DNA of 64,000 bases from Lactiplantibacillus pingfangensis (GTDB lineage Bacteria; Bacillota; Bacilli; Lactobacillales; Lactobacillaceae). Below the pieces are notes generated by a model. The model made no database searches. It had not been told where the DNA came from and saw only the letters and a program-made list of their open reading frames with translations. Every line of letters starts with the position of its first letter. The stretch's first letter is position 1. Positions 6,089 to 53,197 of the stretch are shown in pieces. The stretch spans positions 1 through 64,000 of the forward strand of contig NZ_BJDG01000001.1 of the NCBI RefSeq assembly GCF_005404945.1, in the 5' to 3' direction. The position numbers and the translations under genes are program-made.

Positions 6089-6646
6089 AATAACTAAAAA
6101 GGTTGGAAGACCAAAATTACTAATAACTACTGCCATGTCAATGATTAGGGCATGGAAATTAGTTGACAGTGCCGCTTCCAGTCGCTACTGATAACATGCG
6201 GTCGTGGGACCGGATCAAGCCTGAGAAACGTCTTGTCCCTCGCCCGGAACCCTTGCATAAATCGCAAGTGTTCCGGACCGTCCGTGGTGTAACGCCGGCA
6301 AGAAACATGCCGCCCCAACGCCACCATCACGACCGATGCCATCAGCGGCGACTTCCAGCTAATTTAACTGTTCTTAGGCTAGGTTTAGCGGAAGCAGGCA
6401 GAATCGTTGTGCTGTGGCGGTAAGATTGGCCGGCGTTCTTTGCCGCCTAGTTTTACAGGGTGATTCAAAGACGTGGGCTGTCGGCTTTGAATCGAAGTTC
6501 CAGACCGCACTGTGGCTGGGACAGTCCCACCATAGCACAGCGATTCTGCCTGCCGGAGCGGGATCACCACTAATTTGGAAGTGTCTGTTGCCTATATGAC
6601 AGTGTTTACGAGCCCTTTTGTCCTTTCAACCTTCAGTTAATAATAC
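6089..6646 (+). mobile_element. Long family A element, MITE-like, copy A1, carrying nested B
   Basis: Homologous along its length to 52803-53197. The left end reads TAACTAAAAAGGTTGGAAGACC. The right end, reverse-complemented, reads TTAACTGAAGGTTGAAAGGAC, giving imperfect terminal inverted repeats around AAGGTTGAAAG. The conserved palindromic core is 6175-6360, with the stem GTCGC...GCGAC and CGGTCGTG...CACGACCG. Element B interrupts the 3-prime half at 6397-6550. No coding capacity is seen, so any movement would need a transposase elsewhere. Confidence 0.75.
6397..6550 (+). mobile_element. Family B palindromic element, copy B1 (nested in A1)
   Basis: A 154-base element with perfect ends GGCAGAATCG...CGATTCTGCC and two internal hairpins, GTAAGATT...AGTTTTAC and GATTCAAAG...CTTTGAATC. 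The equivalent position of the A8 copy (junction 53110/53111) reads straight from GCGGAGGCA into TGCCGGAGCGGG without B, which defines both ends. No target duplication is evident. Confidence 0.8.
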
Positions 6647-6880
6647 AAGCAAAGTTATTGAGCTCACTGACAAAATCGTCGGTGAGTTTTTTAGTTTGAT
6701 AAGTTACCGAATAAAACTTTCTAGTGCGACCAAGCTGAGCAATTGCAGTATTGTACAAATGAGTTTTACTAGCCGTTTGGTTAGCGACTCACTAATTAAA
6801 ATATAACTTCTGAGTGAGGAGTGAAGACGATGTTTAAAACTTAGTGACTGACAATTATGGCGAGAATGGGGGAGAAAAAT

Positions 6881-9088
6881 ATGCGCAAAAGGTTAATTTC
6901 AGTCTGTCTAGGATTGCTGACGTTACTACTGACCATCTTTACCCTTGGTCGGGCAGTCCAAGCGGCAACAATCAGCACGACTGGACTGACTGGAAACGAT
7001 GCAACGGTCACTGACCGTTATGGCAATGTGATAACGGACCCAAGTGATTTGAGTAAATGGCAAAATTACGAAATTAATTACAATTGGACCATTCCAAATG
7101 GTCAAAAAATTCAAGCTGGTGATACGGCACCAGTCACATTACCTGGCAATACCGTCGCCAGCTCGGATTTAAGCTTTGATCTGAAAGATGAGACGGGTGC
7201 CGTAATCGGGACCTTTACCATCAAGGCAGGTGAAAGCACTGGGACCATCACGTTTACTGAACAACTGATTGGGACTAAAGACCGGAATGGGACCTTGCAA
7301 CTGTATGCAAAAGGAACTTCGAGCAGCGATACGAATCACCAAGATTGGGCGCTTAATAAGGTTGGTTGGGTCAGCGGCAGTACCCCTCAAGGGACACCGA
7401 CCCGTTTAACGTGGAATGTTGCCTTTAATCCAAGTGGTAAGGACTTGGGCACGGTAACCGTTCAAGATACGATTGGTCCTAACCAGACCTACATGCCCGG
7501 GACGGTAACTGCCGATACTGGTTCTTATAATGATGCCGGCGAATTTGTTTCTACTGGTGTTGAACTGCATCCACAAGTGACGGTCAATGGTCAGCAATTG
7601 ACCTTTGTTTTTGAAAATGTGACCACTGCGGTTAACATGACTTACAATGTTCGTTTGAATAATGTCAGTGCTAACGGTGGCTCCTGGGAAAATGACGCGT
7701 CGATGGACGGCACCGTCGTCAGTGGACATGTCACCTGGGGCGGCAGTGGGACCGGTAATGGCGGCCCTGGTGAACCTGGTCCTGGGACAGAGGAAGATTT
7801 AGGTGCCTTTACATTGGTTAAATCGGATGCTAAAACTGGTTCGGCTTTAGCTGGTGCCGTTTATGATTTGCGAGATAAAAGTGGTTTAGCGATTCAGTCA
7901 GGTTTAACGACTGACCAGAACGGTAAACTCTTCGTGAGCGATTTAGCTGCTGGCGATTATTCACTCGTTGAAACGCAAGCGCCAACCGGTTATGAGCGTA
8001 ATCCACAGCCCATTCCGTTGACAATTGTTGCCGGTGATACGACACCGGTACAACTGACACAAACGGATGAGCCGGTCGTTGTCCCACCGAAAACGGGTGG
8101 GTTGACGTTAGTGAAGACCGCTGTTGGTACTGATGAACGCCTTGCTGGCGCGGTTTATGACTTGCAAGATGCTACTGGTAAAGTGGTTAAATCCGGGTTA
8201 ACAACCGATAAAAACGGTGAATTAACCGTCACCGAGTTGCCAGTTGGTGATTATCAGTTAATTGAAACCCAAGCACCGAGTGGTTATGAAGTGAGTGCTG
8301 TCCCAATTAAGGTCACGATTACCGCCGATCAAACGACGCCGTTGACGGTCACCGCTACTGATGAATTGTTACCAGTAGTGACTAAAGGAGAAGTTCAGTT
8401 AACTAAAACTGATGATCAGACTGGCGCAGCCTTGGCAGGCGCAGAATATGACTTGCAGTATGCACAAGGTAAAGTCATCAAAACTGGGCTGACCACGAAC
8501 GCTGAGGGTCAATTAACCGTAACTGATTTAGCCGCCGGTGATTATCGCTTTGTAGAAATGAAAGCGCCGACAGACTATGAGCTGAATGCGACTCCGTTGG
8601 TGTTTACGGTTAAACCTGGACAGACAACTGTATTAACGGTTGCGGCTAAGGATACGAAATTGCCGACAAAGCCGACGGAACCAGAGCCGCCGCTTGAACC
8701 GGAACCGCCAGTTGAACCAGAGCCACCAGTTGAACCTGAAGAACCAACGACTCCGGAACCACCAGTGACACCAGAGCCGCCAATTGAGCCGACCGTGCCA
8801 GAACCTGGGGAACCGACAAATCCAGTTTTGCCGGAACCAGCGCCTGATTCAACGGCACCGGAAACCGGTGGCAATTCTGTTGCTCAACCTAACCCAACCG
8901 CACCAACGACGGTTGGCCGGCCGAGCGGCACGATTGATGGCAACCCAATTGGTCGTCCTAGCAAGTCTGGTTTACCACAAACCAATGAAAAATCAGATAA
9001 CGAAACGATGGCCTCAGTTGCCGGCGTTTCAATTATGATGATTGTTTTTGCAATTGGCAGTTGGGAATGGCGTAGAAAGCGTTACTAA
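6881..9088 (+). CDS. LPxTG-anchored adhesin with three Cna-B/SpaA domains
   Basis: A 735-residue cell-wall protein, likely an adhesin for host or environmental matrix. An N-terminal signal peptide (RKRLISVCLG...AVQAATI) is followed by a ~250-residue Ig-like, collagen-binding-type region. Three Cna-B repeats begin near residues 306, 406 and 503, each starting LxLxKxD..TG..LAGAxYDL and each able to form an isopeptide bond. A Pro/Glu-rich wall-spanning stalk then leads to the sortase motif LPQTNE at about residue 698, a hydrophobic segment and an RRKRY tail. I start at ATG 6881 because GGGGGAG lies seven bases upstream. An in-frame ATG at 6857 has no site. A composite repeat lies upstream and a strong terminator downstream. 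Confidence 0.92.
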   Translation: MRKRLISVCLGLLTLLLTIFTLGRAVQAATISTTGLTGNDATVTDRYGNVITDPSDLSKWQNYEINYNWTIPNGQKIQAGDTAPVTLPGNTVASSDLSFDLKDETGAVIGTFTIKAGESTGTITFTEQLIGTKDRNGTLQLYAKGTSSSDTNHQDWALNKVGWVSGSTPQGTPTRLTWNVAFNPSGKDLGTVTVQDTIGPNQTYMPGTVTADTGSYNDAGEFVSTGVELHPQVTVNGQQLTFVFENVTTAVNMTYNVRLNNVSANGGSWENDASMDGTVVSGHVTWGGSGTGNGGPGEPGPGTEEDLGAFTLVKSDAKTGSALAGAVYDLRDKSGLAIQSGLTTDQNGKLFVSDLAAGDYSLVETQAPTGYERNPQPIPLTIVAGDTTPVQLTQTDEPVVVPPKTGGLTLVKTAVGTDERLAGAVYDLQDATGKVVKSGLTTDKNGELTVTELPVGDYQLIETQAPSGYEVSAVPIKVTITADQTTPLTVTATDELLPVVTKGEVQLTKTDDQTGAALAGAEYDLQYAQGKVIKTGLTTNAEGQLTVTDLAAGDYRFVEMKAPTDYELNATPLVFTVKPGQTTVLTVAAKDTKLPTKPTEPEPPLEPEPPVEPEPPVEPEEPTTPEPPVTPEPPIEPTVPEPGEPTNPVLPEPAPDSTAPETGGNSVAQPNPTAPTTVGRPSGTIDGNPIGRPSKSGLPQTNEKSDNETMASVAGVSIMMIVFAIGSWEWRRKRY

Positions 9089-9150
9089 GTGATTTTAATA
9101 GAAAGTATGGCACACACATGTGTTGTCACACATCTCGAAGTATGAAAACT

Positions 9151-9203
9151 AACGACCACTAATTCATTGAGATAAATTATCAATGAATTAGTGGTCGTTT
9201 TCT
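9151..9203. terminator. Bidirectional terminator between adhesin and arsB
   Basis: A 20-bp near-perfect stem (AACGACCACTAATTCATTGA and its complement) around a nine-base loop, with a T tract after it on the plus strand. It could also stop readthrough from arsB on the other strand. Confidence 0.75.
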
Positions 9204-9352
9204 GATTGGTACAGCACGTGATTGAGGAAAAACGAGTTCACCTAACTTGCCAGTACGACCAAATAATACCATTTTTCGTTGTTTGGCATGGTCACACTGG
9301 CGGCGAATTTAATATCGATTGTATATAACAATAATTGTTAGTTAGACAGGAC

Positions 9353-10648
9353 TTAGTGAAAAATGGTTAGGGAAAGGTACAATCCTAACAAGGTTATAAA
9401 TAAAACAGGGATCGTAATTGTGATACCAATTTGAAAGTAAGTTTTCCATTTTATTTTGACGCCTTTTTGCGCTAACACATGTAGCCACACGAGGGTAGCT
9501 AAGGAACCGATGGGCGTTATTTTAGGACCTAAGTCTGACCCAATCACATTGGAGAAGACCAAAGTTTGGTGTAATAAATCACTTGTTTGAACACCCTTGA
9601 TTGCTAAAGCATCGATCATCACAGTTGGCATATTATTCATTGCGGAGGATAAGAATGCTGCTAAGTAGCCCATCCCAAGCGTGGTAGCCAGGCGGCCATA
9701 ATGAGTTAATTGCTGAATACCACTGGTCAAAATAGCCGTTAATCCAACGTTTTGCAAACCATAAACGACAACATACATCCCAATAGAAAAGAAGACAATG
9801 CTCCAAGGAGCACCTTTTAACACCAGTTTTGCGTTGACTGCTTTACTCTTGGCAGCAAGCAGGAGAAATACTAAAGCGATGCTTAATGCAATCAGTGAAA
9901 CAGGTATTTTTAAATAGCTACTACCGAAATATCCGACTAGTAATAATCCCAGCACTCCCCATGACACTTTGAATAAGATAGGATCATTAATGGCTGTCTT
10001 AGGGGCGGCCAGATTTTGGGTGTCGTATTTACGTGGCAAAGCTTTTCTAAAATAAAAATATAAAATGCTTACACTAGCAACTAAAGAAAAAATATCGGGT
10101 AACCACATTCGTAAGGCATATTGCGAGAATGAGTAGCCAAAAAAATCGGCTGAAACGATATTTACTAAGTTGCTAACGACAAGTGGCAAGGAAGTCGCAT
10201 CTGCAATAAAACCGCTTGCGATGATGAATGGAAAAATCTTTTTTTCATCGAAGTTTAGCGCTCTAACCATCGCTAAAACTATTGGCGTTAAAATTAAAGC
10301 GGCGCCGTCATTCGCAAATAAGGCGGCAACAATTGCACCTAAAACTGAAATGAGAACAAACATTAAGATGCCGTTACCATTAGCTATCCTGGCCATATGT
10401 AGCGCAGCCCATTTAAAGAAGCCGATTTGATCTAGAATTAAAGAAATAATGATAATTGCAACGAAAGATAGTGTGGCATTCCAAACGATTGAAGTCACAG
10501 TGCCAACATCTTTGAAAGTCACAACGCCAAAAATTAAGGCCAGAATAGCACCACAGATGGCTGACCAGCCAATTGATAAGCCATGGGGTTGCCAAATGAC
10601 AAATACTAGCGTTAAAAGAAAAATACTAATTGCAAAGAAAACAGTCAT
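9353..10648 (-). CDS. arsB: Arsenite efflux membrane protein ArsB
   Basis: A 431-residue polytopic membrane protein with about 11-12 hydrophobic segments, matching the ArsB branch of the ion transporter superfamily. Family landmarks are visible: [14 protein letters not shown] and [13 protein letters not shown] in the two inverted half-repeats, and a Gly-rich start. It should export As(III) and Sb(III), alone using the proton gradient or with the ArsA ATPase encoded next to it. It is transcribed away from arsR, and its promoter shares the intergenic operator region, so it should respond to the same repressor. Splitting arsB from arsDA is unusual compared with the common arsRDABC order. Confidence 0.93.
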
Positions 10649-10685
10649 AAAAAGTCGTTCCTTTCAAATATAAATACATTGATAA

Positions 10686-10727
10686 CTATCTATATGTAAT
10701 CCTACACGCAACATTTCAGACTGTCAA
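10686..10727 (-). promoter_or_regulatory. arsB promoter and operator half-site
   Basis: On the minus strand TTGACA (10727-10722) and TAGGAT (10704-10699) are 17 bases apart. The -35 lies inside the palindrome TCAGACTGTCAACGTCTGA. Downstream, ACATATAGATAG (10697-10686) repeats the half-site found in the arsR promoter. Confidence 0.65.
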
Positions 10728-10765
10728 CGTCTGAAAATCAACGATGTGTCGTGAAAAAAATAGCA

Positions 10766-10819
10766 TTGACAAACATATAGATGAGAATCTATACTTTATA
10801 CATAGATGAGCGTCTATAC
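10766..10819 (+). promoter_or_regulatory. arsR promoter with ArsR operator repeats
   Basis: TTGACA (10766-10771) and TATACT (10790-10795) are 18 bases apart. Two copies of an imperfect dyad, ATAGATGAGAATCTATAC and ATAGATGAGCGTCTATAC, lie across the spacer and just past the -10. The ATAGATG..TCTAT form fits known SmtB/ArsR operators in overlapping RNA polymerase. Binding by the ArsR below is inferred. Confidence 0.8.
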
Positions 10820-10838
10820 AGAAAGGATGCGATGACAA

Positions 10839-11165
10839 TTGGATTATGAAAAATACGTCGGCATGTTAAAAGCGATGGCGGATGAGAAGCGGTTAAAAAT
10901 TATTGACTTATTATCATGTGGAACCATGTGTGCATGTGACATTTTAAAGCACTTTGAGTTTACACAACCAACGTTATCACACCATATGAAAGTGTTACAA
11001 ACGGCTGGGGTTGTAAGCTCACGTAAAGAAGGAAAGTGGCATTACTATACGCTGAGCCCTGACTATATTCGCGAATTTAAAGCGGATACGGATAAATTAT
11101 TGGCTAGTCAAGAGACCTGTATCTGTCATCAAGAGTCCTGTCAAATCGCTAACAAAGAAGGATGA
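10839..11165 (+). CDS. arsR: ArsR family arsenic-responsive repressor
   Basis: A 108-residue winged-helix repressor that should leave its operator when As(III) or Sb(III) binds. The DNA-recognition helix region is FTQPTLSHHMKVLQTAGVV. It is preceded by SCGTMCACDILKHFE, where the Cys-x-Cys corresponds to the alpha-3 arsenic site (ELCVCDL in the plasmid R773 protein). The C-terminus has three more Cys (CICHQESC), as in extended ArsR variants. The start is TTG, with GAAAGGATG about ten bases upstream. It opens the arsRDADC operon, with arsD following after four bases. Confidence 0.92.
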   Translation: MDYEKYVGMLKAMADEKRLKIIDLLSCGTMCACDILKHFEFTQPTLSHHMKVLQTAGVVSSRKEGKWHYYTLSPDYIREFKADTDKLLASQETCICHQESCQIANKEG

Positions 11166-11169
11166 GATT

Positions 11170-11529
11170 ATGAAAAAAATTGAATTATTTGAACCAGCAA
11201 TGTGTTGCTCAACTGGTGTGTGTGGGCCATCAGTGGATCAAAATCTACTCAAAATTACAGCGGTTTTTAACAATTTGTCCGAAGTTGAAGGCGTGGCCGG
11301 CGCGCGTTATAACTTGAGCCAAAATCCCCAAGAGTTTGAGACGAGACCGGATATTCTCGCTGAGGTTAAGAAAAGCATTGATAACTTACCAATCACTGTT
11401 GTTGATGGAGAAATCGTTAAAGAAGGAAGCTATCCAACACTTGATGAAATAACGGAATATACGGGATTGGTTTTTGTGATGCCCGAGAATAGCAATAGCT
11501 GCTGTGGAGACAACTCGAACTGCTGCTAG
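11170..11529 (+). CDS. arsD: Arsenic metallochaperone ArsD (first copy)
   Basis: A 119-residue protein that should hand As(III) to ArsA. It has the N-terminal PAMCCSTGVCG site (Cys12, Cys13, Cys18), which is the essential three-Cys arsenic site of the family, and two C-terminal vicinal pairs (Cys111-112 and Cys118-119) like those of the R773 protein. It lies between arsR and arsA with spacings of 4 and 14 bases, consistent with one transcript. A second, shorter ArsD lies on the far side of arsA. Confidence 0.92.
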   Translation: MKKIELFEPAMCCSTGVCGPSVDQNLLKITAVFNNLSEVEGVAGARYNLSQNPQEFETRPDILAEVKKSIDNLPITVVDGEIVKEGSYPTLDEITEYTGLVFVMPENSNSCCGDNSNCC

Positions 11530-11543
11530 GAGGAAATATCATT

Positions 11544-13274: not shown

Positions 13275-13294
13275 AAATCATTGGAGATGGTTTC

Positions 13295-13621
13295 ATGAAA
13301 AAAATTGAGATATTTGAACCCGCAATGTGCTGTCCGACAGGAATTTGTGGTCCGGCTATCGATCAGAATTTAATACGGATGACGGCAATTCAACACGATG
13401 TTAATCAAAGCAAGGACGTTCGTGTTGTCCGTCGGAATTTAGGTGAAAATCCTAATGCGTTTGTCCGTAATCATCAAATCTCACATTTACTGGAGGTAGC
13501 AGGAATCGACTGTCTACCGGTTACAATTGTTGAAAATAGCGTGATGAATGTGGGTGCTTATCCCACAACAGCAGAGATGGAATTATACACAGGAATGACT
13601 TTGACCAAAAATGAGAAGTAA
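13295..13621 (+). CDS. arsD: Arsenic metallochaperone ArsD (second, short copy)
   Basis: A 108-residue ArsD paralogue with the PAMCCPTGICG site (Cys12, Cys13, Cys18) but without the C-terminal Cys pairs of the first copy. In the R773 protein only the N-terminal three Cys are needed for transfer to ArsA, so it should still work as a chaperone. The two copies are diverged along their whole length, which argues against a very recent tandem duplication. It lies 20 bases after arsA and 15 before arsC in the same operon. Confidence 0.9.
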   Translation: MKKIEIFEPAMCCPTGICGPAIDQNLIRMTAIQHDVNQSKDVRVVRRNLGENPNAFVRNHQISHLLEVAGIDCLPVTIVENSVMNVGAYPTTAEMELYTGMTLTKNEK

Positions 13622-13636
13622 GATGAGGAGCCGGCA

Positions 13637-14050
13637 ATGAAGAAAATCTATTTTTTATGTACAGGAAATTCATGTCGTAGCCAAATGGCGGAAGGATTTG
13701 CCCGAGAATTGTTAGCACCAAGCTGGGAGGTTGCCAGTGCCGGTGTTGAAATGCATGGATTAAATGCTAATGCGGTCGCTGTTATGGCAGAGGTGGGAAT
13801 TGATATTTCGGCACAGTATTCAAAATTAATTGACACGGAATATTTAAATCAGTGTGATGTAGTTGTGACGTTGTGTGGAGATGCCAGAGATAAGTGCCCA
13901 GTAACGCCACCATCGGTAAAAAAATTACATTGGCCACTGCCAGATCCAGCTCAAGCGACTGGCAGTGAGGATGAACAACTAGCAGTGTTCAGAGAAGTCC
14001 GGGATCAAATTCGACGTAATGTTGAGACTTTAATAGTGAATGAGGCTTGA
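13637..14050 (+). CDS. arsC: Arsenate reductase ArsC, thioredoxin-coupled type
   Basis: A 137-residue reductase of the low-molecular-weight phosphatase fold that turns As(V) into As(III) for export. The N-terminal loop CTGNSCRS gives the nucleophile Cys8 and the arginine of the CX5R motif. The distal pair in [11 protein letters not shown] supplies the two Cys that form the exchange disulfide released by thioredoxin, as in the S. aureus pI258 and B. subtilis enzymes. It is the last gene of the ars operon, and a long terminator hairpin follows 90 bases downstream. Confidence 0.93.
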
Positions 14051-15233: not shown

Positions 15234-15243
15234 AGAGTGAAAC

Positions 15244-16369: not shown

Positions 16370-16955
16370 GGTCAGGTTCCTTTCATTGATTAATTAAGTC
16401 TAGTATACACTTTACCGCGCTATAAGCGGTGTCACTACACATCAGTGGACTAGTGTTTAGAATTCTAAAAATTTGAAAACGGCCGTCACTTCCGGTTGGA
16501 ACTGATCACATGCGGTCGTGGGACCGGTCCAAGCCAGAAGCGTCTTGGACCTCGCCCGGAACCCTTGCAAGAATCGCAAGTGTCCCGGTCCGTCCGTGGT
16601 GTAACGTCGGCAAAAAACAGCCGATGTAACGCCACCATCACGACCGATGTGATCAGTCCCAACCTGCAGCAAATTAGGTTCAATGGCGTCAGACAGAAAC
16701 GTTGTGCCCACCACGAGTTTAGGTTGAAACTATCTGTTGCTGACAGGATAGCGCCTTTAAGCTTCAATCAATTTCATTATAAAATTAAACTAGTACTCAA
16801 GTTGAAAGTCTTCTTAGGCCCACATAACTGTGAAGCAGATGATGACTCGAAAGCGCTGGGTTAAAAAAATCCAGTCTCGGCGGTCTCATTATTTTTTAAT
16901 TATTAAAATTGTGCTATAATAATGTTTCAATAACTATCAAAGCGAGGTCTTCATT
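16370..16955. other. Gene-free stretch with repeat A2 and the asd promoter region
   Basis: It holds repeat A2 (16489-16670), a diverged A flank to about 16740, and an AT-rich segment ending in TATAAT (16915-16920), which is the likely -10 of asd. No gene is supported. Confidence 0.6.
16489..16670 (+). repeat. Family A palindromic repeat, copy A2
   Basis: The closing stem GGTTGGAACTGATCACAT pairs with ATGTGATCAGTCCCAACC. Inner hairpins include CTTGCAAGAATCGCAAG and a GTAACGTCGGC/GCCGATGTAAC stem. TGATCACA/TGTGATCA replaces TGATAACA/TGTTATCA of copy A3, so pairing is kept. The 3-prime flank retains traces of the B junction region (CAGACAGAAACGTTGTGC). Confidence 0.85.
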
Positions 16956-21090: not shown

Positions 21091-21273
21091 CTTCCGGTTG
21101 GGACTGATAACATGCGGTCGTGGGACCGGTCCAAGCCAAGCACGTCTTGGCCCTCGCCCGGAACCCTTGCCAAAAGCGCAAGTGTCCCGGACCGTCCGTG
21201 GCGTAACATCGGCAAAAAAACGCCGATGTTACGCCACCTTCACGACCGATGTTATCAGTCCCAACCTTCAGCT
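21091..21273 (+). repeat. Family A palindromic repeat, copy A3 (best-formed)
   Basis: The closing stem GGTTGGGACTGATAACAT pairs with ATGTTATCAGTCCCAACC and continues with CGGTCGTG/CACGACCG. Inside are CCAAG...CTTGG, CTTGC...GCAAG and a perfect 16-bp hairpin (GTGGCGTAACATCGGC and its complement). This cloverleaf-like layout is the reference for the family. Confidence 0.9.
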
Positions 21274-21737
21274 ATTCAGCTTAGTGGTGCAATCACTAGG
21301 AGCCTAGTTTTGGCGCGACTATTGCTGATATGGTCCTGCTCACTTCCTTTTGATACTTGTGATTATAGTAACAACTAGATGGTGTCAACGTATTATACCG
21401 GGGCAGTCTAACTTTAAATGGTCAATTAGCTGGCATTGGTAGTTGTGAAAGCAATCATCAACGGTATACTTATCGGTTCAAATACCAAAGAAAATCTTGG
21501 GGTAAAATACGTTTGGATGCGATGCATAGAATAATTGGTGTCCAGCAAAATGATAATTATCCTCAGAGTTTAATTAAAGCTGTACCATCGGTGACTCGAA
21601 CTGTCCTAAAAGAAGTTAAAAGTAAACACTTAGGCATCACCTCAGGACGAATCTACATTGATGCGGCCAATAGTTCGGCTGGTGGTCATTTGGCAAAGAT
21701 TTTTAGGTAACTGATAGTTAAAAACAATGCACGTCTT

Positions 21738-22884: not shown

Positions 22885-22939
22885 GAGTTTTAAATTAAAT
22901 GACTAATCAAATTTTAATAAACGGTTGTGATTAGAAAAA

Positions 22940-23181
22940 GTAGTTAAGAATTTTCTCATACAGAGAGCTTGGGATGCTGAGAACCAAGCAGATCGTCTTA
23001 ACGAACCCACATCTATGAACTGCTAAGGTGAACCTGAACAATTAGCCTTAGCCGAATGGTTACGTTAGCCAAGTTGACATTACGTCAACATGAGGCTACT
23101 AGTGTGAGCTAGTAACGAAATAAGGTGGCACCACGTGGAAACGTCCTTTAGCAGAAATATTTTGCTGAGGGACGTTTTTTT
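22940..23181 (+). promoter_or_regulatory. T-box leader of the his operon, probably tRNA-His specific
   Basis: Stem I is closed by GTAGTT (22940-22945) and AACTGC (23018-23023) and contains the AGAGAGC...GGATGCTGAGAACC apical region. The T-box sequence AAGGTGGCACCACG lies at 23122-23135. A terminator (ACGTCC..TTTAGCA / TGCTGAGGGACGT, 23141-23176) precedes a T run. CAC at 23008-23010 is the best specifier for His. The base after TGG is C, which would pair with discriminator G, whereas tRNA-His usually has C73, so the specificity needs checking. Confidence 0.85.
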
Positions 23182-30737: not shown

Positions 30738-30757
30738 ACTCAGCACTAATAGTGCCG

Positions 30758-30938
30758 CTTCCGGTTACCACCGATTACATGCGGGCGAGGGACCAGGCCA
30801 AGCCAGAAACGTCTTGGCCTTCGCCCGGAATGGTTGCAAAACCCGCAACTATCCCGGACCGTCCGTCCCGTAAGACCGGCAAAAAGCGCCAGCCTAACGG
30901 GACCTTCACGCCCGATGCATCGGTGGCAACCTCCAGCT
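30758..30938 (+). repeat. Family A palindromic repeat, copy A4
   Basis: The closing stem GGTTACCACCGAT pairs with ATCGGTGGCAACC and GCGGGCG pairs with CGCCCG. Both differ from copy A3 on the two arms in compensating fashion. It directly follows hisC and might slow or end transcription, but there is no T run. Confidence 0.85.
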
Positions 30939-31227
30939 AGACTTGTGATGTGAGTGATGTTGACATTAACAACAACTGGGTCAAAGATTCCAAGCTACGC
31001 AACAAATGTTTCAAACTTCTGTTGCGACAGTATTGCGTACAACATTAACGACAGTAGTCTGCATGACTGATAGTCAACTTTTGAATTTTAATTGAATAAT
31101 CCGCAAATAAAGCTTTCGTCTTTTTACGATGGCTTTATTTGAGGTTACTGGAGGTTGAAAGCTAAAATTTGCGAGTAAATTCCATTATATTAATAATTAG
31201 CGTATACAGATTAGTTAATAGCTGGCA

Positions 31228-31260
31228 CTTCCGGTTGAGGCCGACACCAATCTTCAGCAA
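31228..31260 (+). repeat. Family A repeat, internally deleted copy A5
   Basis: Only the outer edges of the A core survive (CTTCCGGTTGAGGCCGAC joined to ACCAATCTTCAGC). The downstream A flank (AAGCTTAGCGGAGCCA) is retained and carries B2. Confidence 0.7.
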
Positions 31261-31279
31261 ATTAAGCTTAGCGGAGCCA

Positions 31280-31434
31280 GGCAGAATCGTTATGCCCTGG
31301 CGGTAAGATTGGCCGGCGTTCTGGGCCGACTAATCTTACAGGGCGATTTAAAGACGTGGGCTATCGGCTTTAAATCGAAGTCACAGACTGCCCTATGGCT
31401 GGGAATGTCCCCGCCATAGCACAACGATTCTGCC
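31280..31434 (+). mobile_element. Family B palindromic element, copy B2 (nested in A5)
   Basis: A 155-base element with ends GGCAGAATCG...CGATTCTGCC, at the same position in the A flank as B1. Inner hairpin GTAAGATT/AATCTTAC is fully paired where B1 has G-U pairs, and GATTTAAAG/CTTTAAATC replaces GATTCAAAG/CTTTGAATC, a two-sided compensating change. Confidence 0.85.
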
Positions 31435-38130: not shown

Positions 38131-38337
38131 TAATTTAGCGTTTTAAGTGTAATTGTAACAACAATGTTCTAATACCTGGATTTTGACTTTTTCGATTGTC
38201 ATTGAGATAACGACGGTAATTGGTGATTTTTAGCTTTCAACCAAAGTGTGACCGCTAAAAGATTTGTCATATCAGTAACAGATCGTCTGACTTAGAATCT
38301 GCTTGAGTGCACTGCTTTCTAAGTGAGCGGTTAATTA

Positions 38338-38520
38338 GCTGTAGGTTGGGACTGATCGCATCGGTCGTGCAGGTGGCGTTGAGTCGGCGATCTTTGCCGA
38401 TTTTACGCCACCTGCACGACCGGGACACTTGCGGTTTTTGCGAGGGTTTCGGGCGAGGGGCAAGACGTTCCTGGCTTGGCCCAGTCCCACGACCGCATGC
38501 GATCAGTCCTAACCGGAAGC
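38338..38520 (-). repeat. Family A palindromic repeat, copy A7 (inverted)
   Basis: The same core read on the minus strand. The stem GGTTAGGACTGATCGCAT pairs with ATGCGATCAGTCCCAACC-like sequence, with the inner GTGGCGT/ACGCCAC hairpin. It faces A6. Confidence 0.85.
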
Positions 38521-38651
38521 GGCAATCTTTAGATTTTGAACCTAACTTCTAAAGTAAGGTTCAAAAATTAAAACATAAATATTAACTTATCACTAGTTTA
38601 TCGAACGTACGTTTGCTATAATTGGTTAGCAAATGAAAGGGGCGCAGGGTT

Positions 38652-44134: not shown

Positions 44135-44140
44135 AGCAAC

Positions 44141-44412: not shown

Positions 44413-44522
44413 GTCTTGTTTTAAACACATAAGATCGTTTTCGACACGGTAACGTGACACCTAGTTTTATCATACTGTAAAAGAATCACAATTGTTGATT
44501 ACTTGAAAGGAAGTTGTTGTTA

Positions 44523-45494: not shown

Positions 45495-45523
45495 TGGTCA
45501 AAAAACACATTTGAAGAATCTTT

Positions 45524-45558
45524 ATGAAAAAGTCCTGAAATATTTCAGAACTTTTTTC
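45524..45558 (+). terminator. Terminator after the panE-type gene
   Basis: AAAAAGTCCTGAAATATTTCAGAACTTTTTT forms a stem with a T run. Confidence 0.8.
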
Positions 45559-45705
45559 ATTTGCTTAAATCCATTACATCATAAGGTTGAAAACGGTCTC
45601 AAACACAATTGGTCTATCCCTATTTCGCCCTAATGAACTTTCCTGGAACAGCATGATGTGATAGGATTTACAACGTATTGAAAAAGAGATCAGGGAGAAA
45701 TTGGT

Positions 45706-47700: not shown

Positions 47701-47788
47701 GTTTTTGAAATACTGAATCAGCGGGCAGGGGGAGTCTCCGTGTTTCGGATTCAACAATGTTATGGTGGTGTAAAATAAGTATCACTAA

Positions 47789-47848
47789 AAAAACATCAGC
47801 CGATCATGACTTGAGAAGTTTCTTCAAGCAATGATCGGCTGATGTTTT
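47789..47848. terminator. Bidirectional terminator after the PTS gene
   Basis: AAACATCAGCCGATCAT and its complement enclose a second small CTTGA/TCAAG stem, between convergent genes. Confidence 0.85.
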
Positions 47849-47881
47849 GGTTACTTTTTTCAAAACGGCCTAAAAATTAGT

Positions 47882-48262
47882 TTACTTATAATTACTGATT
47901 TCAATTAAGTTGTTGTCAGGATCACGGACATATAATGAGGTTAATTTACCGTGAGCGCCAGTTCGCTCAACCGGACCCGCAACGATATCAACGAAGTAAC
48001 TCTTTAGATGATGTTGAATCGCTTCAATCGGATCTTTGGCAATGAAGCACAAGTCGGCGCTACCCGGAGTGGGGGTGCCAGCAACGGGTTCATGTGGTTC
48101 ATCAACCACTTGAAAGTTGATTTTTTGTTTGCCGACCAAGACTGCTTGACGGTCACCGTCAAAGGTAATGATTGGTAAATCAAAGACTTCATGGTAAAAG
48201 CGCAAGGTACGCGGTAAATTGGTGACGGTTAAAACGATATGATCAATGTCACGAATATTCAC
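47882..48262 (-). CDS. VOC superfamily (glyoxalase/dioxygenase-like) protein
   Basis: A 126-residue vicinal-oxygen-chelate protein. The first beta-alpha-beta unit begins RDIDHIVLTVTNLPRTLRFY and the second contains the TSLYVRDPDNNLIEIS motif, whose Glu is a typical metal ligand. The family includes glyoxalase I, fosfomycin-resistance proteins and extradiol dioxygenases, and the role here is unknown. The start is GTG at 48262, with AAAGGA nine bases upstream. The open frame continues another 76 codons upstream, but that part has no start site and enters repeat A9. Confidence 0.85.
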   Translation of the reverse strand: MNIRDIDHIVLTVTNLPRTLRFYHEVFDLPIITFDGDRQAVLVGKQKINFQVVDEPHEPVAGTPTPGSADLCFIAKDPIEAIQHHLKSYFVDIVAGPVERTGAHGKLTSLYVRDPDNNLIEISNYK

Positions 48263-48414
48263 AAGCTCAAATCCTTTCAGAATAATTTCAAGGTTAAGTA
48301 TACCACGAGGCAAACTCGAATAGCGGTCGAAAATATTGTTAGCCAACGCTTTCGATTTGAATGAGCTGCATGGGTATCTGAAACGTATTTGGCTGGCGTC
48401 CTTTTTACTAACTA

Positions 48415-48600
48415 AGTGTTGAAAGACGAAAATTACTAATAAATACGGTCGTACCAGTACAGCGTTGCTTCCGGGCGTCACTGATTGCATCGGGCGTGAC
48501 CGTTTTCCGCGTTAGAATGTCGACAAAACCGGCCGATGCGACGCAACCATCACGAATGTTGCTAATATTGCGCTAGGCCCTGTCCAGTTCACTTTTTTAT
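48415..48600 (+). repeat. Family A element, degenerate copy A9
   Basis: The left flank GTTGAAAGACGAAAATTACTAATAAATAC matches the left ends of A1 and A8. The core starts at 48468, but about half of it is missing (GCATCGGGCGTGACCG runs into CGACAAAACCGGCCGATGCG). Confidence 0.7.
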
Positions 48601-48634
48601 AATTGTGGTCTTAATTTAAAACAGAGAATCCGCA

Positions 48635-48791
48635 TAGCCGTGAGGAGGTGTCGTTTGGGGCTCAGCCGTGGCATTTGACTTAGCGCGGTGGGCTTCCGAG
48701 GTTAGTCAAAAACCAGCTTTTGAGACCGCCCTTTGGCTCAAAACTGGTTCACAGCGTTCCAGCCCCAAACGACGCCCCCGGTAGGCGGGAA
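48635..48791 (+). repeat. Family C palindromic repeat, copy C3
   Basis: The outer stem GGTGTCGTTTGGGGCT pairs with AGCCCCAAACGACGCC, a third sequence variant that keeps pairing with C1 and C2 (one G-U). It lies about 120 bases upstream of a GNAT gene, like C1. The 3-prime flank shared by C1 and C2 is absent. Confidence 0.85.
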
Positions 48792-48912
48792 TAACCAGCT
48801 ATCCATTATTTAATTGACAAGTTGGAAAAAATGAAATTACTAACGCGTTCTGAATTTTGACAACGTCGACGATTCATAGTAAGGTATTAACTACTAAGAA
48901 GGAGGACTATTT

Positions 48913-49500
48913 GTGATAACGATTCGACCAGCTGATCAGGATGATGCGGGCCAGATAGCACCGCTAATTAATATGATCTTTGATGAAATGCAACTTGAGG
49001 AACTAGACGACATTCCAGAACCTGACTTAGAGCAGGCCATTACTGCAGCTTATCAGACACCAGCTTATTTGTCTGAGAAAGCAACAACGGTGGTGGCCGA
49101 GGCCGATGGTCAAGTGGTTGGGGTGGCATTTGGTTACCCCGACAAGAATGAAGATGCCGTAGACGACGTGTTAGCGCGGGTCACTGCGGGCAACGATGCG
49201 TTTGGTTCAGCGTTTGAAGCTGAAGCAGAGAGTTATGAACATGAATGGTACTTGGACTCAATTGCAGTTGATCCTAATTATCAGGGGCACGGTATTGGTG
49301 GTCGTTTATTAGCCGCCTTACCTAAGTATGCGCGTCAGGCCGGTCAAAAACGGATCGGTTTGAACGTGGATATGGCTAACCCTGGCGCCAAAAAGCTTTA
49401 TGATCGTCATGATTATGAAACCGTTGGGATTAAGCCAATTGGTGATCACATGTATTTTCATATGCAATATGAGTTGGATAAGGATTTAGTCATGGCATAG
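48913..49500 (+). CDS. GNAT family N-acetyltransferase (second)
   Basis: A 195-residue acetyltransferase. It starts ITIRPADQDDAGQIAPLI and has VVGVAFGYPD. The acetyl-CoA loop is LDSIAVDPNYQGHGIGGRLL, followed by LNVDMANPGAKKLYDRHDYE. Substrate unknown. The start is GTG with AAGGAGGA ten bases upstream. C3 lies upstream. It is unrelated in detail to the GNAT at 3083. Confidence 0.9.
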   Translation: MITIRPADQDDAGQIAPLINMIFDEMQLEELDDIPEPDLEQAITAAYQTPAYLSEKATTVVAEADGQVVGVAFGYPDKNEDAVDDVLARVTAGNDAFGSAFEAEAESYEHEWYLDSIAVDPNYQGHGIGGRLLAALPKYARQAGQKRIGLNVDMANPGAKKLYDRHDYETVGIKPIGDHMYFHMQYELDKDLVMA

Positions 49501-49520
49501 CGCCGCTAAACCTTACTTTG

Positions 49521-49550
49521 CAGGCCTCGTTAGTCAACGGGGCCTGTTTT
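49521..49550 (+). terminator. Terminator after the second GNAT gene
   Basis: CAGGCCTCGTTAGTCAACGGGGCCTG stem followed by four T. Confidence 0.7.
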
Positions 49551-49587
49551 GCAGAGTTAATTAATGAAAGCGTAGGATGAAAATAAA

Positions 49588-51141
49588 ATGGCGTTACTAG
49601 AAGTAAAAGATCTGTCGCAAAGTTTTGCCGATCGTAAGTTATACGAAGGCGCGAACTTTACCTTAGAACGGGCCGACCATATGGGCATTGTTGGCCAAAA
49701 TGGGGCCGGCAAGAGTACCTTAATTAAAATTTTAACCGGACAAATTTTACCTTTAGAAGGTGAAATTAAATGGCAACGGAACTTGCGGACGGGCTATTTG
49801 GATCAATACGCGGATATTCCAGCGGGGATGACCTTATATGCTTTTCTGAAAACGGCGTTCCAACGGCTCTATGACATGGATGCGAATATGCAACAATATT
49901 ACGCTGATTATGCTACCAGTATGGATGACGGCCTATTGGAACGGGCTGGCCGGATTCAAGAAACACTCGAAGCCAATAACTTCTATGATATTGAGACCGA
50001 GATGGAACGGGTGATTACCGGGCTAGGTCTTGATGAAATTGGCCGCGACCATGTTATTAGTGAAATGTCTGGTGGACAACGTTCTAAAATTATTTTGGCG
50101 AAATTATTGCTTGAAAATCCAGATGTGATTATTTTGGATGAACCGACAAACTATTTGGACACTGCGCACATTTCATGGTTGGAAGACTATTTGAATGGTT
50201 TCCGTGGGGCCGTGATGGTGATTTCCCATGATTATGACTTCTTGCAAAATGTCACGAATTGTATTTGTGATGTGGCTTTTGGCAAGATTATTAAGTATCG
50301 TGGTGATTTCAAGTCAGCAATGCGCCAAAAAGAAGCGCGTAAACAAGCACAATTAAAAGCCTTTGAAAAGCAACAAGTGGTGATTGATAAGGCTGAAAAG
50401 TTCATCCGCAAAAATAAGGCGGGTTCCAAGTCAACGATGGCGAAGTCGCGGGAAAAGATGCTCTCGCATTTGGACCGGGTCGATCCACCGAGTGAAAATA
50501 CCCATGCTAGTTTTGCCTTTCCATATTTGGATACTGGCTCACAAAATGCCTTAGCCGTAGTCAAACTTTCGGTAGGGTATGGCAAGCCGTTACTCGCACC
50601 AGTCACGTTCTCAATGACGAATGGCGAAAAGTTGGCCTTTAAAGGTTTTAACGGGGTTGGTAAGTCAACCTTGATCAAATCAATTTTAGGTGTGATTCCA
50701 GCATTGGGTGGCAAGTCAAACTTTTCACCATCGGCTAAAATCAATTACTTTAATCAAGATTTAGACTGGGATAATCCAGAATGGACGCCGTTACAGACGA
50801 TTCAAAACGACTATCCAACGATGTTACCGAAGACAATCCGAACGAAGTTGGCGAAGTGTGGGATCAATGCTGCTAATGCGATGAAACCAATGCACTTACT
50901 GAGTGGTGGCGAACAGACTAAAGTTAAGTTGGCTTTGTTGGAACTCATTCCAAGTAACTTCTTGATCATGGATGAACCAACTAATCATTTGGATGATGAA
51001 ACTAAGGAAGGGCTCAAGCAAGCCTTGCAGAGCTTCCAAGGTAATTTAATTCTTGTAAGCCATGAAAGTAGTTTTGTGGACGGTTGGGTCGATAAAGAAC
51101 TAAATGTTGAAAAATTAAGCCTGAAAGAACGTCAAGGTTAA
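49588..51141 (+). CDS. ABC-F family ATPase
   Basis: A 517-residue soluble protein with two ABC cassettes and no membrane domain, which is the ABC-F layout of ribosome-associated translation factors. First cassette: VGQNGAGKSTL, MSGGQRSK, VIILDEPTNYLD. Second: FNGVGKSTL, LSGGEQTKVK, FLIMDEPTNHLD. The charged linker (residues ~240-305, rich in Lys, Arg and Gln) is the P-site tRNA interaction motif region. The sequence is of the housekeeping YbiT/YkpA style rather than an antibiotic-resistance type, though that is a judgement by eye. It is monocistronic with its own terminator. Confidence 0.92.
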   Translation: MALLEVKDLSQSFADRKLYEGANFTLERADHMGIVGQNGAGKSTLIKILTGQILPLEGEIKWQRNLRTGYLDQYADIPAGMTLYAFLKTAFQRLYDMDANMQQYYADYATSMDDGLLERAGRIQETLEANNFYDIETEMERVITGLGLDEIGRDHVISEMSGGQRSKIILAKLLLENPDVIILDEPTNYLDTAHISWLEDYLNGFRGAVMVISHDYDFLQNVTNCICDVAFGKIIKYRGDFKSAMRQKEARKQAQLKAFEKQQVVIDKAEKFIRKNKAGSKSTMAKSREKMLSHLDRVDPPSENTHASFAFPYLDTGSQNALAVVKLSVGYGKPLLAPVTFSMTNGEKLAFKGFNGVGKSTLIKSILGVIPALGGKSNFSPSAKINYFNQDLDWDNPEWTPLQTIQNDYPTMLPKTIRTKLAKCGINAANAMKPMHLLSGGEQTKVKLALLELIPSNFLIMDEPTNHLDDETKEGLKQALQSFQGNLILVSHESSFVDGWVDKELNVEKLSLKERQG

Positions 51142-51149
51142 AGTTATGA

Positions 51150-51179
51150 GCGTCATCCAGTGATGGATGGCGTTTTTTC
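51150..51179 (+). terminator. Terminator of the ABC-F gene
   Basis: CGTCATCCAGTGATGGATGGCG stem followed by six T. Confidence 0.85.
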
Positions 51180-51223
51180 GTGTTATTATTTAAATTATGA
51201 TTGAAACCGAAAGCGGGAGTCCT

Positions 51224-51817
51224 ATGAACAAAGGAAGAGTTGAAGCTTTTACTGATGCGGTCATTGCGATTGTGATGACCATTATGGTGTTGGAATTTAA
51301 AATACCGGATCAGCCAACCTTTAAAGCGATGGCGGAAAATAGCAGTTACCTAGCAGCTTACCTGATTAGTTTCTTGTTTATCGGAGTCGCTTGGTATAAC
51401 CATCATTATATGTTGACGCTAACAAAGCATGTGACTAAACGGATCTATTGGTTGAATAATTTGTGGTTGTTGTCGATGTCGGTTTTACCAGTTGCGACTG
51501 CCTGGGCCGGGAAATTTATCACGAAACCACAGCCAGAATTATTTTATTTCATTATATTTTTGTTATGGGCATTGGCGTACATTGCCTTATCACACGCCAT
51601 TATCGTGGCAAATCAGGCCGATCATCCAGAAGTGAGTGCAAAAATTCGGCGGATGGTTGTGTATCGTCTCCATACGAGTTGGTGGTTCTGGATACTCAGT
51701 GTTGGCTTGGCAGCCATGATTGTGTTCGTCTGGCCACCGCTATCGTTAGTCTTCACGGTGATTGAATTGATCTTAATGGCGGTGCTCACGACGGCGGACA
51801 GTGATCGGGTCGCTTGA
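51224..51817 (+). CDS. TMEM175/DUF1211 family membrane protein (third)
   Basis: A 197-residue six-segment membrane protein starting MNKGRVEAFTDAVIAIVMTI. It is nearly colinear with the protein at 18166 (both have YLISFLFIGVAWYNHHYMLT, WAGKF and FVWPPLS), so the pair arose by duplication. It is more distant from the member at 14392. ATG 51224 is chosen, with GGGAG five bases upstream. Potassium-channel activity is inferred from the family, and mixed subunits between the two close paralogues are possible. Confidence 0.85.
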   Translation: MNKGRVEAFTDAVIAIVMTIMVLEFKIPDQPTFKAMAENSSYLAAYLISFLFIGVAWYNHHYMLTLTKHVTKRIYWLNNLWLLSMSVLPVATAWAGKFITKPQPELFYFIIFLLWALAYIALSHAIIVANQADHPEVSAKIRRMVVYRLHTSWWFWILSVGLAAMIVFVWPPLSLVFTVIELILMAVLTTADSDRVA

Positions 51818-51934
51818 GTTTACTGAAAAATTACAAAGGGTTTACCAAACCTCGATTGTGAATCAGTGCTAAGTTAGTGACAATGAAACTAGCTTGAAAA
51901 GCTTTGACTGATTTTCAAAAAGGGGTTAGGTCGG

Positions 51935-52168
51935 ATGGTACATTATTTTTTCACTAGCGTCATGTTAGTTATCTTCTTGATGGGGATGATTGTCCAATGG
52001 CGCTATCGGGGCTACTTGCAACTATTAGTGCTGGTGCATAGTGTTGAAATTAGTTTTATGGGAATTATCGGCTGGTACAGTTTTGGTGAACTCGTGTTAT
52101 TGCCATTATTGGGTCTCTGGCTACTAGGAACCCTCGCAATTTATGTGATGAATCAGTACGCTGACTAA
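51935..52168 (+). CDS. Small membrane protein of unknown function
   Basis: A 77-residue protein with two or three hydrophobic helices (FTSVMLVIFLMGMIV, LLVLVHSVEISFMGIIG, LVLLPLLGLWLLGTLAIYV). There is no recognisable family. AAAGGGGTT lies about 12 bases before the ATG and a tight terminator overlaps its stop, so it is probably genuine. Confidence 0.7.
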   Translation: MVHYFFTSVMLVIFLMGMIVQWRYRGYLQLLVLVHSVEISFMGIIGWYSFGELVLLPLLGLWLLGTLAIYVMNQYAD

Positions 52169-52203
52169 AAAAGTTTGGGCCATTTTAGGCTCAAACTTTT
52201 TTA
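52164..52203. terminator. Bidirectional terminator
   Basis: CTAAAAAAGTTTGGGCC...GGCTCAAACTTTTTTAG lies between convergent genes and includes both stop codons. Confidence 0.88.
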
Positions 52204-52665
52204 GTCAACGATATGGCTCGTATCATGGTCATCAGGTAACTTAAAGCCGCGATTAGGAACGCTCGTTGAGAAAACGATTTGGGTGCTTGTTTTCCCGAAG
52301 GTTTGCAGTTGATTGACAAAATCGTCCAATTCTTGCGTGGATTCAAAAATCACTTTCAAGATTTGAGAATATTCGCCGGTCACACAATCGCACTCCAAAA
52401 TATTTGGAATGCTTTCTACGAACGGGTAAAACCGTTCTTTTTGAGTTGGTTCGAGTTGCAGTTGAATATAGGCCTTAATCCGATAATTCAGCTTCTGATA
52501 GTTTAAGTTGGCTTGATAATCACGAATGATACCACTACTTTTTAGCCGAGAAATGCGAGCTGAGATTGCTGGCGATGAAATAAAGCATTGATCAGCCAAG
52601 GCTTTTAACGAGATACGAGCATCCGTCTGTAAGGCGTTCAGAATCTTCAAATCGGTTTTATCCAT
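52201..52665 (-). CDS. Lrp/AsnC family transcriptional regulator
   Basis: A 154-residue regulator. The helix-turn-helix is LDLKILNALQTDARIS-like at the start with FISSPAISARISRLKSSGII, followed by the RAM effector domain with CDCVTGEYSQILKV. Such proteins sense amino acids and often control amino acid transport or their own gene. ATG 52665 has AGGAGG ten bases upstream, and a longer in-frame reading adds 22 unsupported residues. No obvious target gene is adjacent. Confidence 0.9.
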   Translation of the reverse strand: MDKTDLKILNALQTDARISLKALADQCFISSPAISARISRLKSSGIIRDYQANLNYQKLNYRIKAYIQLQLEPTQKERFYPFVESIPNILECDCVTGEYSQILKVIFESTQELDDFVNQLQTFGKTSTQIVFSTSVPNRGFKLPDDHDTSHIVD

Positions 52666-52802
52666 AGCGCAAACGCCTCCTAAGTCATTAGTCATATGAT
52701 AGCATACTTTCACAGCAATTTTTAATCTCATGGCGTGGTTTCATCAGAAAGGATAACAACTTTACTGTTGATTATCATTGGGAGTAAAATACGATTATGA
52801 CA

Positions 52803-53197
52803 TAATAACTAAAGGTTGAAAGATCAAAATCGTTAGTAACTACTGCCACGTCAATAATTAGGGCATGAATATTAGTTGACATGACCGCTTCCAGTTGCCA
52901 CTGATAACATGCGGCCGTGGGACCGGGTCAAGCCTGAGGAACGTCTTGTCCCTCGCCCGTAACACTTGCACAAATCGCAAGTGTCCCGGACAGTCCGTGG
53001 CGTAACGCCGGCAAGAAACATGCCGACCCAACACTACCTTCACGGCCGATGCCATCAGCGGCGACTTCCAGCTAATTTAACTGTTTTTTAGGCTAGGTTT
53101 AGCGGAGGCATGCCGGAGCGGGATTACCACTAATTTGGAAGTTCCCGTTGCCTATATGACAGTGCTTGCGAGCCCTTTTAACCTTCAGATAATAACT
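52803..53197 (+). mobile_element. Long family A element, copy A8, without B (empty site)
   Basis: It matches A1 from TAATAACTAAAGGTTGAAAG at the left to ACCTTCAGATAATAACT at the right. The palindromic core is 52888-53073 (CGGCCGTG/CACGGCCG where A1 has CGGTCGTG/CACGACCG). At 53110/53111 it lacks B. Its right end stops about 18 bases before the ATG of the next gene. Confidence 0.78.

What the first reader, a model, noticed from the sequence alone, without database searches (positions are those of the whole stretch)
6397..53111. Filled and empty sites define a second element, family B, nested in family A
A1 carries 154 extra bases at 6397-6550 while A8 reads directly from GCGGAGGCA to TGCCGGAGCGGG at 53110/53111. 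The extra piece has perfect ends GGCAGAATCG/CGATTCTGCC. The same element sits at the same place in A5 (31280-31434), and B1 and B2 show two-sided changes in their hairpins (GATTCAAAG/CTTTGAATC versus GATTTAAAG/CTTTAAATC). This is either site-specific insertion into a palindromic GGCATGCC target or precise loss of a hairpin arm. No target duplication is seen, which is unlike ordinary transposition.
Basis: seen in the sequence. Interest (0 to 1): 0.85.

Follow-up and report, generated by a model that had tools for sequence, protein, structure and literature searches.

The report
Jumping hairpin element losing an arm
The 154-base piece looks like one folding arm of a larger short mobile element in a group of lactic acid bacteria rather than a separate jumping gene; the 'empty' copies seem to have lost this arm, and the arm itself resembles a conserved RNA structure.

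Summary
B1 (6397-6550) and B2 (31280-31434) are present, and A8 reads straight through at 53110/53111. At least 42 B copies lie in this Lactiplantibacillus genome. B does not behave as an independent site-specific element. 'A' is a MITE of an IS4-family, ISPepr1-like insertion sequence: ends CTAAAGGTTGAAAG, 7-8 bp target duplications, and the same ends on open IS copies in sister species. A8 is absent from the orthologous locus in 11 of 11 sister genomes fetched. B and the 'A' hairpin are two arms of this folded element. Of 39 own copies scored, 22 carry full B, 4 a shortened B, 13 none. Losses are scattered on a weakly resolved tree, and 9 of 28 scored deletions have >=4 nt direct-repeat homology versus 1.9% of random ones. 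A8's nearest full copy has GCATGC at both hairpin feet; collapsing them gives exactly GGCATGCC. So the 'palindromic target' is best read as a deletion scar from slippage across a hairpin. Most interesting is B itself: 39 of 61 pairs show two-sided changes, G-U exceeds A-C, no Rfam match; perhaps a MITE-borne RNA motif.

The parts
6094..6636 (+). Element A1: full MITE carrying both arms (A hairpin and B); ends CTAAAAAGGTTGGAAG ... CTTTCAACCTTCAG
   Evidence: Sequence; terminal-repeat scans; RNA fold of 6096-6636 z = -10.1, 0 of 100 shuffles as stable
6087..6093 (.). Left 7-bp target duplication TTAATAA of A1
   Evidence: TSD statistics over 53 end pairs
6637..6643 (.). Right 7-bp target duplication TTAATAA of A1
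6175..6358 (+). A hairpin arm of A1, bounded by the direct repeats CTTCCAG (6175-6181 and 6352-6358)
6384..6560 (+).
   Evidence: Alignment A1 and consensus structure, 61 pairs
31148..31279 (+). Left part of the element holding B2: left end CTGGAGGTTGAAAG (31148-31161) and what looks like a stub of a deleted A hairpin
   Evidence: Read by eye, letters checked; the stub was not tested
31280..31434 (+). B2 copy of the B arm
52809..53188 (+). Element A8: MITE without B (380 bp)
   Evidence: no A or B match at the orthologous asnC-nlpC locus in 11 of 11 sister genomes fetched, of 20 with a match
52802..52808 (.). Left 7-bp target duplication ATAATAA of A8
   Evidence: (7 of 7)
53189..53195 (.). 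Right 7-bp target duplication ATAATAA of A8
53108..53113 (.). GCATGC deletion scar: single copy of the repeat that stands at both feet of the hairpin in the closest of 12 full copies compared, C16:41672-42212
   Evidence: deletion of 154 nt with 6-nt homology GCATGC
16489..16675 (+). Further A-hairpin copy in the window (others at 21091-21274, 30755-30939 and, on the minus strand, 38333-38522)

Best explanation
'A' is a non-autonomous mobile element (MITE, about 540 bp when complete) moved in trans by an ISPepr1-like IS4-family transposase. It folds back on itself and carries two branched hairpin arms: the A hairpin and B. B is an ancestral part of the element, not an insertion into it. Copies lacking B arose by deletion of the arm, most likely replication slippage in which the polymerase jumps the hairpin foot between short direct repeats. 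In A8 the repeats were GCATGC (as in C16:41672), and their collapse gives exactly GGCATGCC. Shown: the terminal repeats, the duplications, the lineage-specific insertion of A8, junction-diverse losses, and the excess of direct-repeat homology. Inferred: the transposase-MITE link (from shared ends and duplication length), the direction of change (loss), and slippage as the molecular step. Also inferred, with less confidence: B is kept as an RNA structure on the element's + strand.
For: Element: the end pattern (up to 2 mismatches) occurs 99 times in the genome versus 2 for the reversed control. Of 53 end pairs, 10 have perfect 7-bp and 4 perfect 8-bp duplications; mean 7-bp match is 0.50 versus 0.34 (sd 0.02) shuffled. 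IS4-family transposases flanked by the same ends sit in the own genome (split frame) and as open frames of 440, 451 and 457 aa in G019, G008 and G020; the G019 and G020 copies have 7-bp duplications GACTTTA and ATAGGAG, none was seen for G008. The A8 locus is conserved and element-free in 11 of 11 sister genomes fetched; spacing is 97-101 nt in the three that align from both start codons (L248, L246, L253) versus 485 here, a difference of 384-388 against 380+7. Loss: 22 full, 4 shortened, 13 without B among 39 copies. The empty label needs 9 changes on the copy tree, at least 3 on well-supported branches. Junction homology >=4 nt in 9 of 28 deletions versus 1.9% of random ones, by six different repeats: GCATGC, GAAGC, AGCG, ATTT, TAAC and CTTCCAG; the last removes the A hairpin and leaves B. 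Further losses, read by eye, in G020 (L234) and G009 (L215). Slippage across hairpins with direct repeats at the foot is established (PMC4134008, passages read).
Against: 12 of 28 deletions have no junction homology and 2 more have 1 nt, so not every loss is repeat-mediated, or the ancestor differed. The empties C3:84146 and C10:66933 look precise or nearly so by eye, but their closest full copies give no homology. The copy tree is weakly resolved (7 of 54 inner branches starred), the scatter of the empty label is no different from shuffled labels (9 changes versus mean 10.4; 125 of 500 as low), and gene conversion between copies could mimic recurrence. In sister species 16 of 102 B rows have no detected IS4 end, A remnant or linker, so an independent history of B is not excluded. 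Insertion of B into GGCA^TGCC with a 6-bp duplication would also give GCATGC at both feet.
Confidence: 0.8

Rival explanations
1. B is a second, site-specific mobile element that inserts into a palindromic GGCATGCC site inside A.
For: Four own-genome copies are cut exactly or nearly at GCA|TGC (C1, C40, C10, C3). Copies of the TGCAG...CTGCA type have GCATGC on both sides, which could be a 6-bp duplication. B stands without an A hairpin in 39 of 102 sister-species rows. In the 39-row set one 4-nt offset matched slightly better than any of 20 shuffles (0.481 versus best 0.462).
Against: That match is one 4-nt offset only, and in the 16 rows with no trace of A or ends it is within the shuffles (0.484 versus mean 0.465, max 0.516). 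B rows share feet and often linker or ends with A-type elements. Other junctions, shortened Bs and loss of the A hairpin instead point to generic deletion. No B in plasmid or phage records or by pattern in viral contigs at the settings used.
Confidence: 0.08
2. The B-less state is ancestral: an old MITE without B captured B once, and both lineages now transpose.
For: A hairpins without B are common among the loci read from L. nangangensis (G013) and others. B-less copies are 13 of 39 here.
Against: B-less copies carry different scars, some with B remnants (C13:15868, C6:65787, L215). The empties C1 and C10 group with full copies, and C40 and C3 form a small all-empty group with two others inside a clade that holds full copies (weak support in part). 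B-bearing elements with both ends occur in own and sister genomes (19 own and 22 sister rows with A, B and both ends).
Confidence: 0.09
3. Two-sided changes in B are a DNA effect (template switching or repair between palindrome arms), not selection for an RNA.
For: Palindromes can be corrected by arm-templated repair (general knowledge, recalled). In the A hairpin two-sided changes occur with no strand bias (G-T 112: A-C 109). B's central hairpin alone shows none (14:18, counted by hand). Sister-species copies show no orientation bias relative to genes (14 sense: 16 antisense).
Against: Over all of B, G-T events exceed A-C 195:106, also on recent own-genome tips 42:16, p = 0.0009. Apical loops are among the most conserved columns. 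The sign test over pairs is weaker, 24:11, p = 0.04.
Confidence: 0.4

Closest known systems
MITEs of IS4-family insertion sequences, ISPepr1 subgroup
   Same: Ends CTAAAGGTTGAAAG close to the published YT-AA-YTT---A; 7-8 bp duplications; apparent preference for AT-rich targets; IS length about 1560 bp (table and passages read in PMC2266710; own data).
   Different: One of the conserved end bases differs (G for Y at position 7). The inside is not the IS but two large branched hairpins.
bcr1-bcr18 repeats of the Bacillus cereus group
   Same: Multi-copy intergenic repeats; bcr1-3 called MITE-like, bcr10/bcr18 with conserved folds proposed as RNA elements; 84 of 165 and 62 of 155 copies transcribed in two strains (passages of PMC3446304).
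   Different: No sequence comparison made; here two arms are joined in one IS4-ended element and one arm is lost in many copies.
REPINs and other palindromic mobile repeats
   Same: Non-autonomous mobile palindromes (search listing and start of abstract of PMC3116915 only).
   Different: REPINs are far smaller and use a RAYT transposase, not an IS4 enzyme (recalled).

Membership tests
MITE | Terminal inverted repeats bounding a short element | tested here: met
   99 matches to the end pattern versus 2 control; 53 pairs
MITE | Target-site duplication | tested here: met
   10 perfect 7-mers and 4 perfect 8-mers of 53; mean match about 7 sd above shuffled pairs
MITE | No transposase gene inside | tested here: met
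   Longest ORF of 60 aa or more inside or overlapping A1 is 86 aa
MITE | Shares ends with an autonomous IS | tested here: met
   IS4-family genes between the same ends in L098 (split), L207, L208, L209
MITE | Transposed in trans by that IS | not testable with these tools
   Needs a transposition assay
IS4 family, ISPepr1 subgroup | Duplication of 7-8 bp | tested here: met
   (2 of 3 open IS copies), 41 against the table in PMC2266710
IS4 family, ISPepr1 subgroup | Ends YT-AA-YTT---A | tested here: inconclusive
   7 of 8 stated bases match by eye; G instead of Y at position 7
IS4 family, ISPepr1 subgroup | IS length 1500-1600 bp | tested here: met
   1559, 1565 and 1567 bp between outer ends in L207, L208, L209; the own-genome split copy is 1460 bp
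IS4 family, ISPepr1 subgroup | YREK motif in the transposase | tested here: met
   Y-2-R-3-E-6-K read by eye in YARRWQIEGYFKIAK (spacing recalled); NCBIfam IS4_4 254.4 bits against cut-off 250 for the 298-aa piece
   No convincing duplication and no shared flank seen beyond the hairpin foot and, in some rows, the A-B linker; 16 of 102 rows stand without detected A or ends
Known structured RNA family (Rfam) | Match at the gathering score | tested here: not met
   Only a T-box elsewhere in the window; none in 5 sister loci, 4 with B and 1 with A only; one chance-level hit at E 2.9 in 5900-6900

The most novel reading that the evidence does not exclude
B is a functional structured RNA motif of Lactiplantibacillus, selected in place on the element's + strand and spread by an IS4-type MITE, mostly to places between genes that are not divergent; the B-less copies are natural knock-outs of it at more than a dozen loci.
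Probability: 0.3. Interest if true: 0.68.

Novelty: new variant of a known kind. Interest (0 to 1): 0.47.

Why it matters
It turns an apparent transposon-in-transposon puzzle into a readable record of hairpin deletion: one genome holds full, shortened and armless copies with their scars, a natural series for studying slippage at palindromes. It also shows a MITE carrying a strongly covarying, RNA-like arm that no Rfam model matched at the settings used, present in several Lactiplantibacillus species, a genus that includes food-fermenting bacteria (recalled).

Tried and rejected
Rejected: B as an independent transposon (no convincing duplication); a single deletion in A8 (13 of 39 copies lack B); chance similarity; a known Rfam RNA; spread by plasmids or phages (no match at the settings used). 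Also rejected as a general rule: the element lying in sense 3' ends. The own genome gave 17 sense to 5 antisense tandem contexts among 54 placed of 55 elements, but sister species gave 14 to 16, with 28 of 114 rows dropped for short flanks. Both show few divergent contexts (1 and 3) and many convergent ones (20 and 44). The ORF-based calling is rough: A8 itself lies between divergent asnC and nlpC genes but was called '--'.

Led nowhere: paper searches for this family (searches found nothing; two searches gave listings, none about it; a 2008 survey of stem-loop families, PMC2267715, passages found, names only L. johnsonii among the lactobacilli searched for); a promoter scan (none found). For the A8 locus 12 of 21 genomes were fetched, own included. 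Copy numbers are lower bounds, because the genome search scored at most 40 candidates.

Correction on the way: the 158-row B set held two antisense self-matches of own-genome copies (seen); one search dropped them, giving 156 rows (42 own, 114 sister). Sister-species counts are unaffected. In one search, 1 of 40 two-armed rows (C21:13862) was set aside by me as a mis-pairing with another subfamily, giving 39. One search was given 22 deleted and 12 full copies; its 28 deletions are not all of B, and a few (C10) are alignment-dependent.
Full report
Observation. Searches confirm the sequence facts: 154 bases at 6397-6550, a 155-base relative at 31280-31434, and a direct join at 53110/53111 in A8. 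B1 finds 40 places in the own genome (2.9 Mb, 59 contigs; 40 of 65 candidates scored), and B2 adds two. After dropping two antisense self-matches, 42 own copies and 114 distinct sister-species copies covering at least 80% of the B model were aligned. A strict pattern for the B core gave 88 stretches in the collection of 84,980 species, all titled L. daoliensis, L. xiangfangensis, L. nangangensis or an uncultured Lactobacillus genome; this is why I call the genus Lactiplantibacillus, the own species being unnamed. By similarity, 10 of 59 relatives besides the own genome matched, all in the same genus; 5 of the 10 only weakly (G007, G008, G014, G017, G018; best E from 4e-13 to 8e-4). Plasmid and phage records and viral contigs gave none at the settings used.

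What A is. A1, A8 and many other copies begin with CT(A/G)AAGGTTGAAAG and end with its inverse. The 18-base end pattern with up to 2 mismatches occurs 99 times (54 forward, 45 reverse) against 2 for the reversed control. Among 53 end pairs in the fetched loci, 10 are flanked by perfect 7-bp and 4 by perfect 8-bp duplications; the mean 7-bp match is 0.50 against 0.34 (sd 0.023) for shuffled flanks. A1 is bounded by TTAATAA and A8 by ATAATAA. At C2:121196-122655 the same ends enclose an IS4-family transposase in two frames, 298 and 157 aa. G019, G008 and G020 hold open frames of 440, 451 and 457 aa between the same ends, two of the three with 7-bp duplications. In a published survey the ISPepr1 subgroup of IS4 has 7-8 bp duplications, 1500-1600 bp length and ends YT-AA-YTT---A (passages of PMC2266710). 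I therefore call A a MITE of an ISPepr1-like IS; actual mobilisation is inferred. A8 is a lineage-specific insertion. The asnC-nlpC neighbourhood (gene names by recall) is conserved in 11 of 11 sister genomes fetched (20 have the nlpC-like gene) and none has A or B there; the start-to-start spacing is 97, 99 and 101 nt in the three that align from both start codons, and 485 here, a difference of 384-388 for a 380-bp element plus 7-bp duplication.

What B is. The complete element folds as one closed foldback with two branched arms (A1: z = -10.1; A8, without B: z = -4.0). On a 40-row alignment (the two window copies and 38 of 54 rows picked for diversity), 61 pairs are formed in 96.3% of cells and 39 pairs show changes on both sides. 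Shuffles give 19.0 (sd 2.2) such pairs and none of 500 reach the observed value; sliding the partners drops pairing to 31-40%. The apical loops (AAAGACG, TCGGCTT, CAGACCG, TGGCTG) are nearly invariant.

Filled, shortened and empty copies. Of 40 own copies with both arms of the flanking sequence, one was a mis-pairing. Of the other 39, 22 have full B, 4 a shortened B and 13 none. Empties do not form one clade: 9 changes are needed, and at least 3 are forced by well-supported branches; but only 7 of 54 inner branches are well supported, and shuffled labels need about as many (mean 10.4). For 22 deleted copies, each deletion of 25 nt or more was scored against the closest of 12 full copies: 9 of 28 have 4 nt or more of junction homology against 1.9% of random deletions of the same lengths, mean 2.2 against 0.68; 12 of 28 have none. 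Some events are shared by copies (GCATGC, CTTCCAG and ATTT twice each), so the nine stand for six distinct repeats: GCATGC, GAAGC, AGCG, ATTT, TAAC, CTTCCAG. A8's closest full copy is C16:41672, whose hairpin has GCATGC at both feet; removing one repeat plus the arm gives A8's GGCATGCC exactly. The CTTCCAG events remove the A hairpin and leave B, so arm loss works both ways. Sister species show losses of their own, read by eye: L234 (G020), where the repeat is GAGTC, and L215 (G009), where part of the right arm remains. Published work reports slippage deletions between direct repeats at hairpin feet in vitro and in vivo (passages of PMC4134008).

B outside A. In sister species 39 of 102 scorable B rows (12 of 114 dropped for short flanks) have no A hairpin upstream. 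Of these, 23 keep an IS4-type end, a weak A remnant or the A-B linker, and 16 keep none by these tests. Linker scores exceed controls (8 of 39 above 5 bits against 0 of 90). Background end matches at shifted positions were 2 of 150 windows in sister species (1 of 63 upstream, 1 of 87 downstream) and 0 of 23 in the own genome. No convincing duplication flanks B itself. The simplest reading is arm loss and decay of ends, but an independent past of B is not excluded.

Is B an RNA? If B worked only as DNA, G-T and A-C intermediates should be equal. In B the inferred events are 195 G-T and 106 A-C (p = 3e-7; per-pair sign test 24:11 with 11 ties, p = 0.04). On own-genome tips they are 42:16 (p = 0.0009) and on sister tips 109:69 (p = 0.003). 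The A hairpin, as a control, gives 112:109, and B's central hairpin alone gives 14:18 (counted by hand), so the bias lies mainly elsewhere, in the outer stem and the first hairpin. Paired columns change less than unpaired ones on own tips (0.029 against 0.047), but hardly so on sister tips (0.052 against 0.055). These events come from a parsimony reconstruction on a tree of related copies, so I take them as moderate support for a + strand RNA. Against it: sister-species copies show no orientation bias (14:16), and no promoter-like site was found in 6000-6800.

Verdict. The insertion option and the single-deletion option are not. The element is a new family of a known kind of mobile repeat. Its B arm, without a match in Rfam release 15 at the settings used and not found in the paper searches, is the part worth following.

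Noticed in passing
L216, L222, L228, L235 (G013, L. nangangensis by matching contig length): The A hairpin is very frequent in this species (42 matches, 40 of 97 candidates scored); in these four loci no B and no convincing IS4-type end lies nearby. It may be a second free-standing structured repeat.
   Followed up: partly
window 22918-23151: T-box leader (Rfam RF00230, 120.6 bits).
   Followed up: no
window 6660-6689: Terminator-like hairpin shortly after element A1, so A1 lies between the stop codon of an upstream oxidoreductase-like gene (4974-6086, name by recall) and a terminator-like site.
   Followed up: partly
window 11161-11247 and 13286-13372: Two similar DNA stretches (74% identical) that seem to begin genes reading MKKIELFEPAMCC.. 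and MKKIEIFEPAMCC..; by recall these look like two ArsD-type genes.
   Followed up: no
window 6857-9088: 743-aa surface-protein-like ORF with repeated modules and an LPQTN-type C-terminal sorting signal (read by eye).
   Followed up: no
L098 (C2:121196-122655): The only IS4-type IS found in the own genome by this query has its transposase split over two frames, so the MITEs here may lack an active partner.
   Followed up: partly
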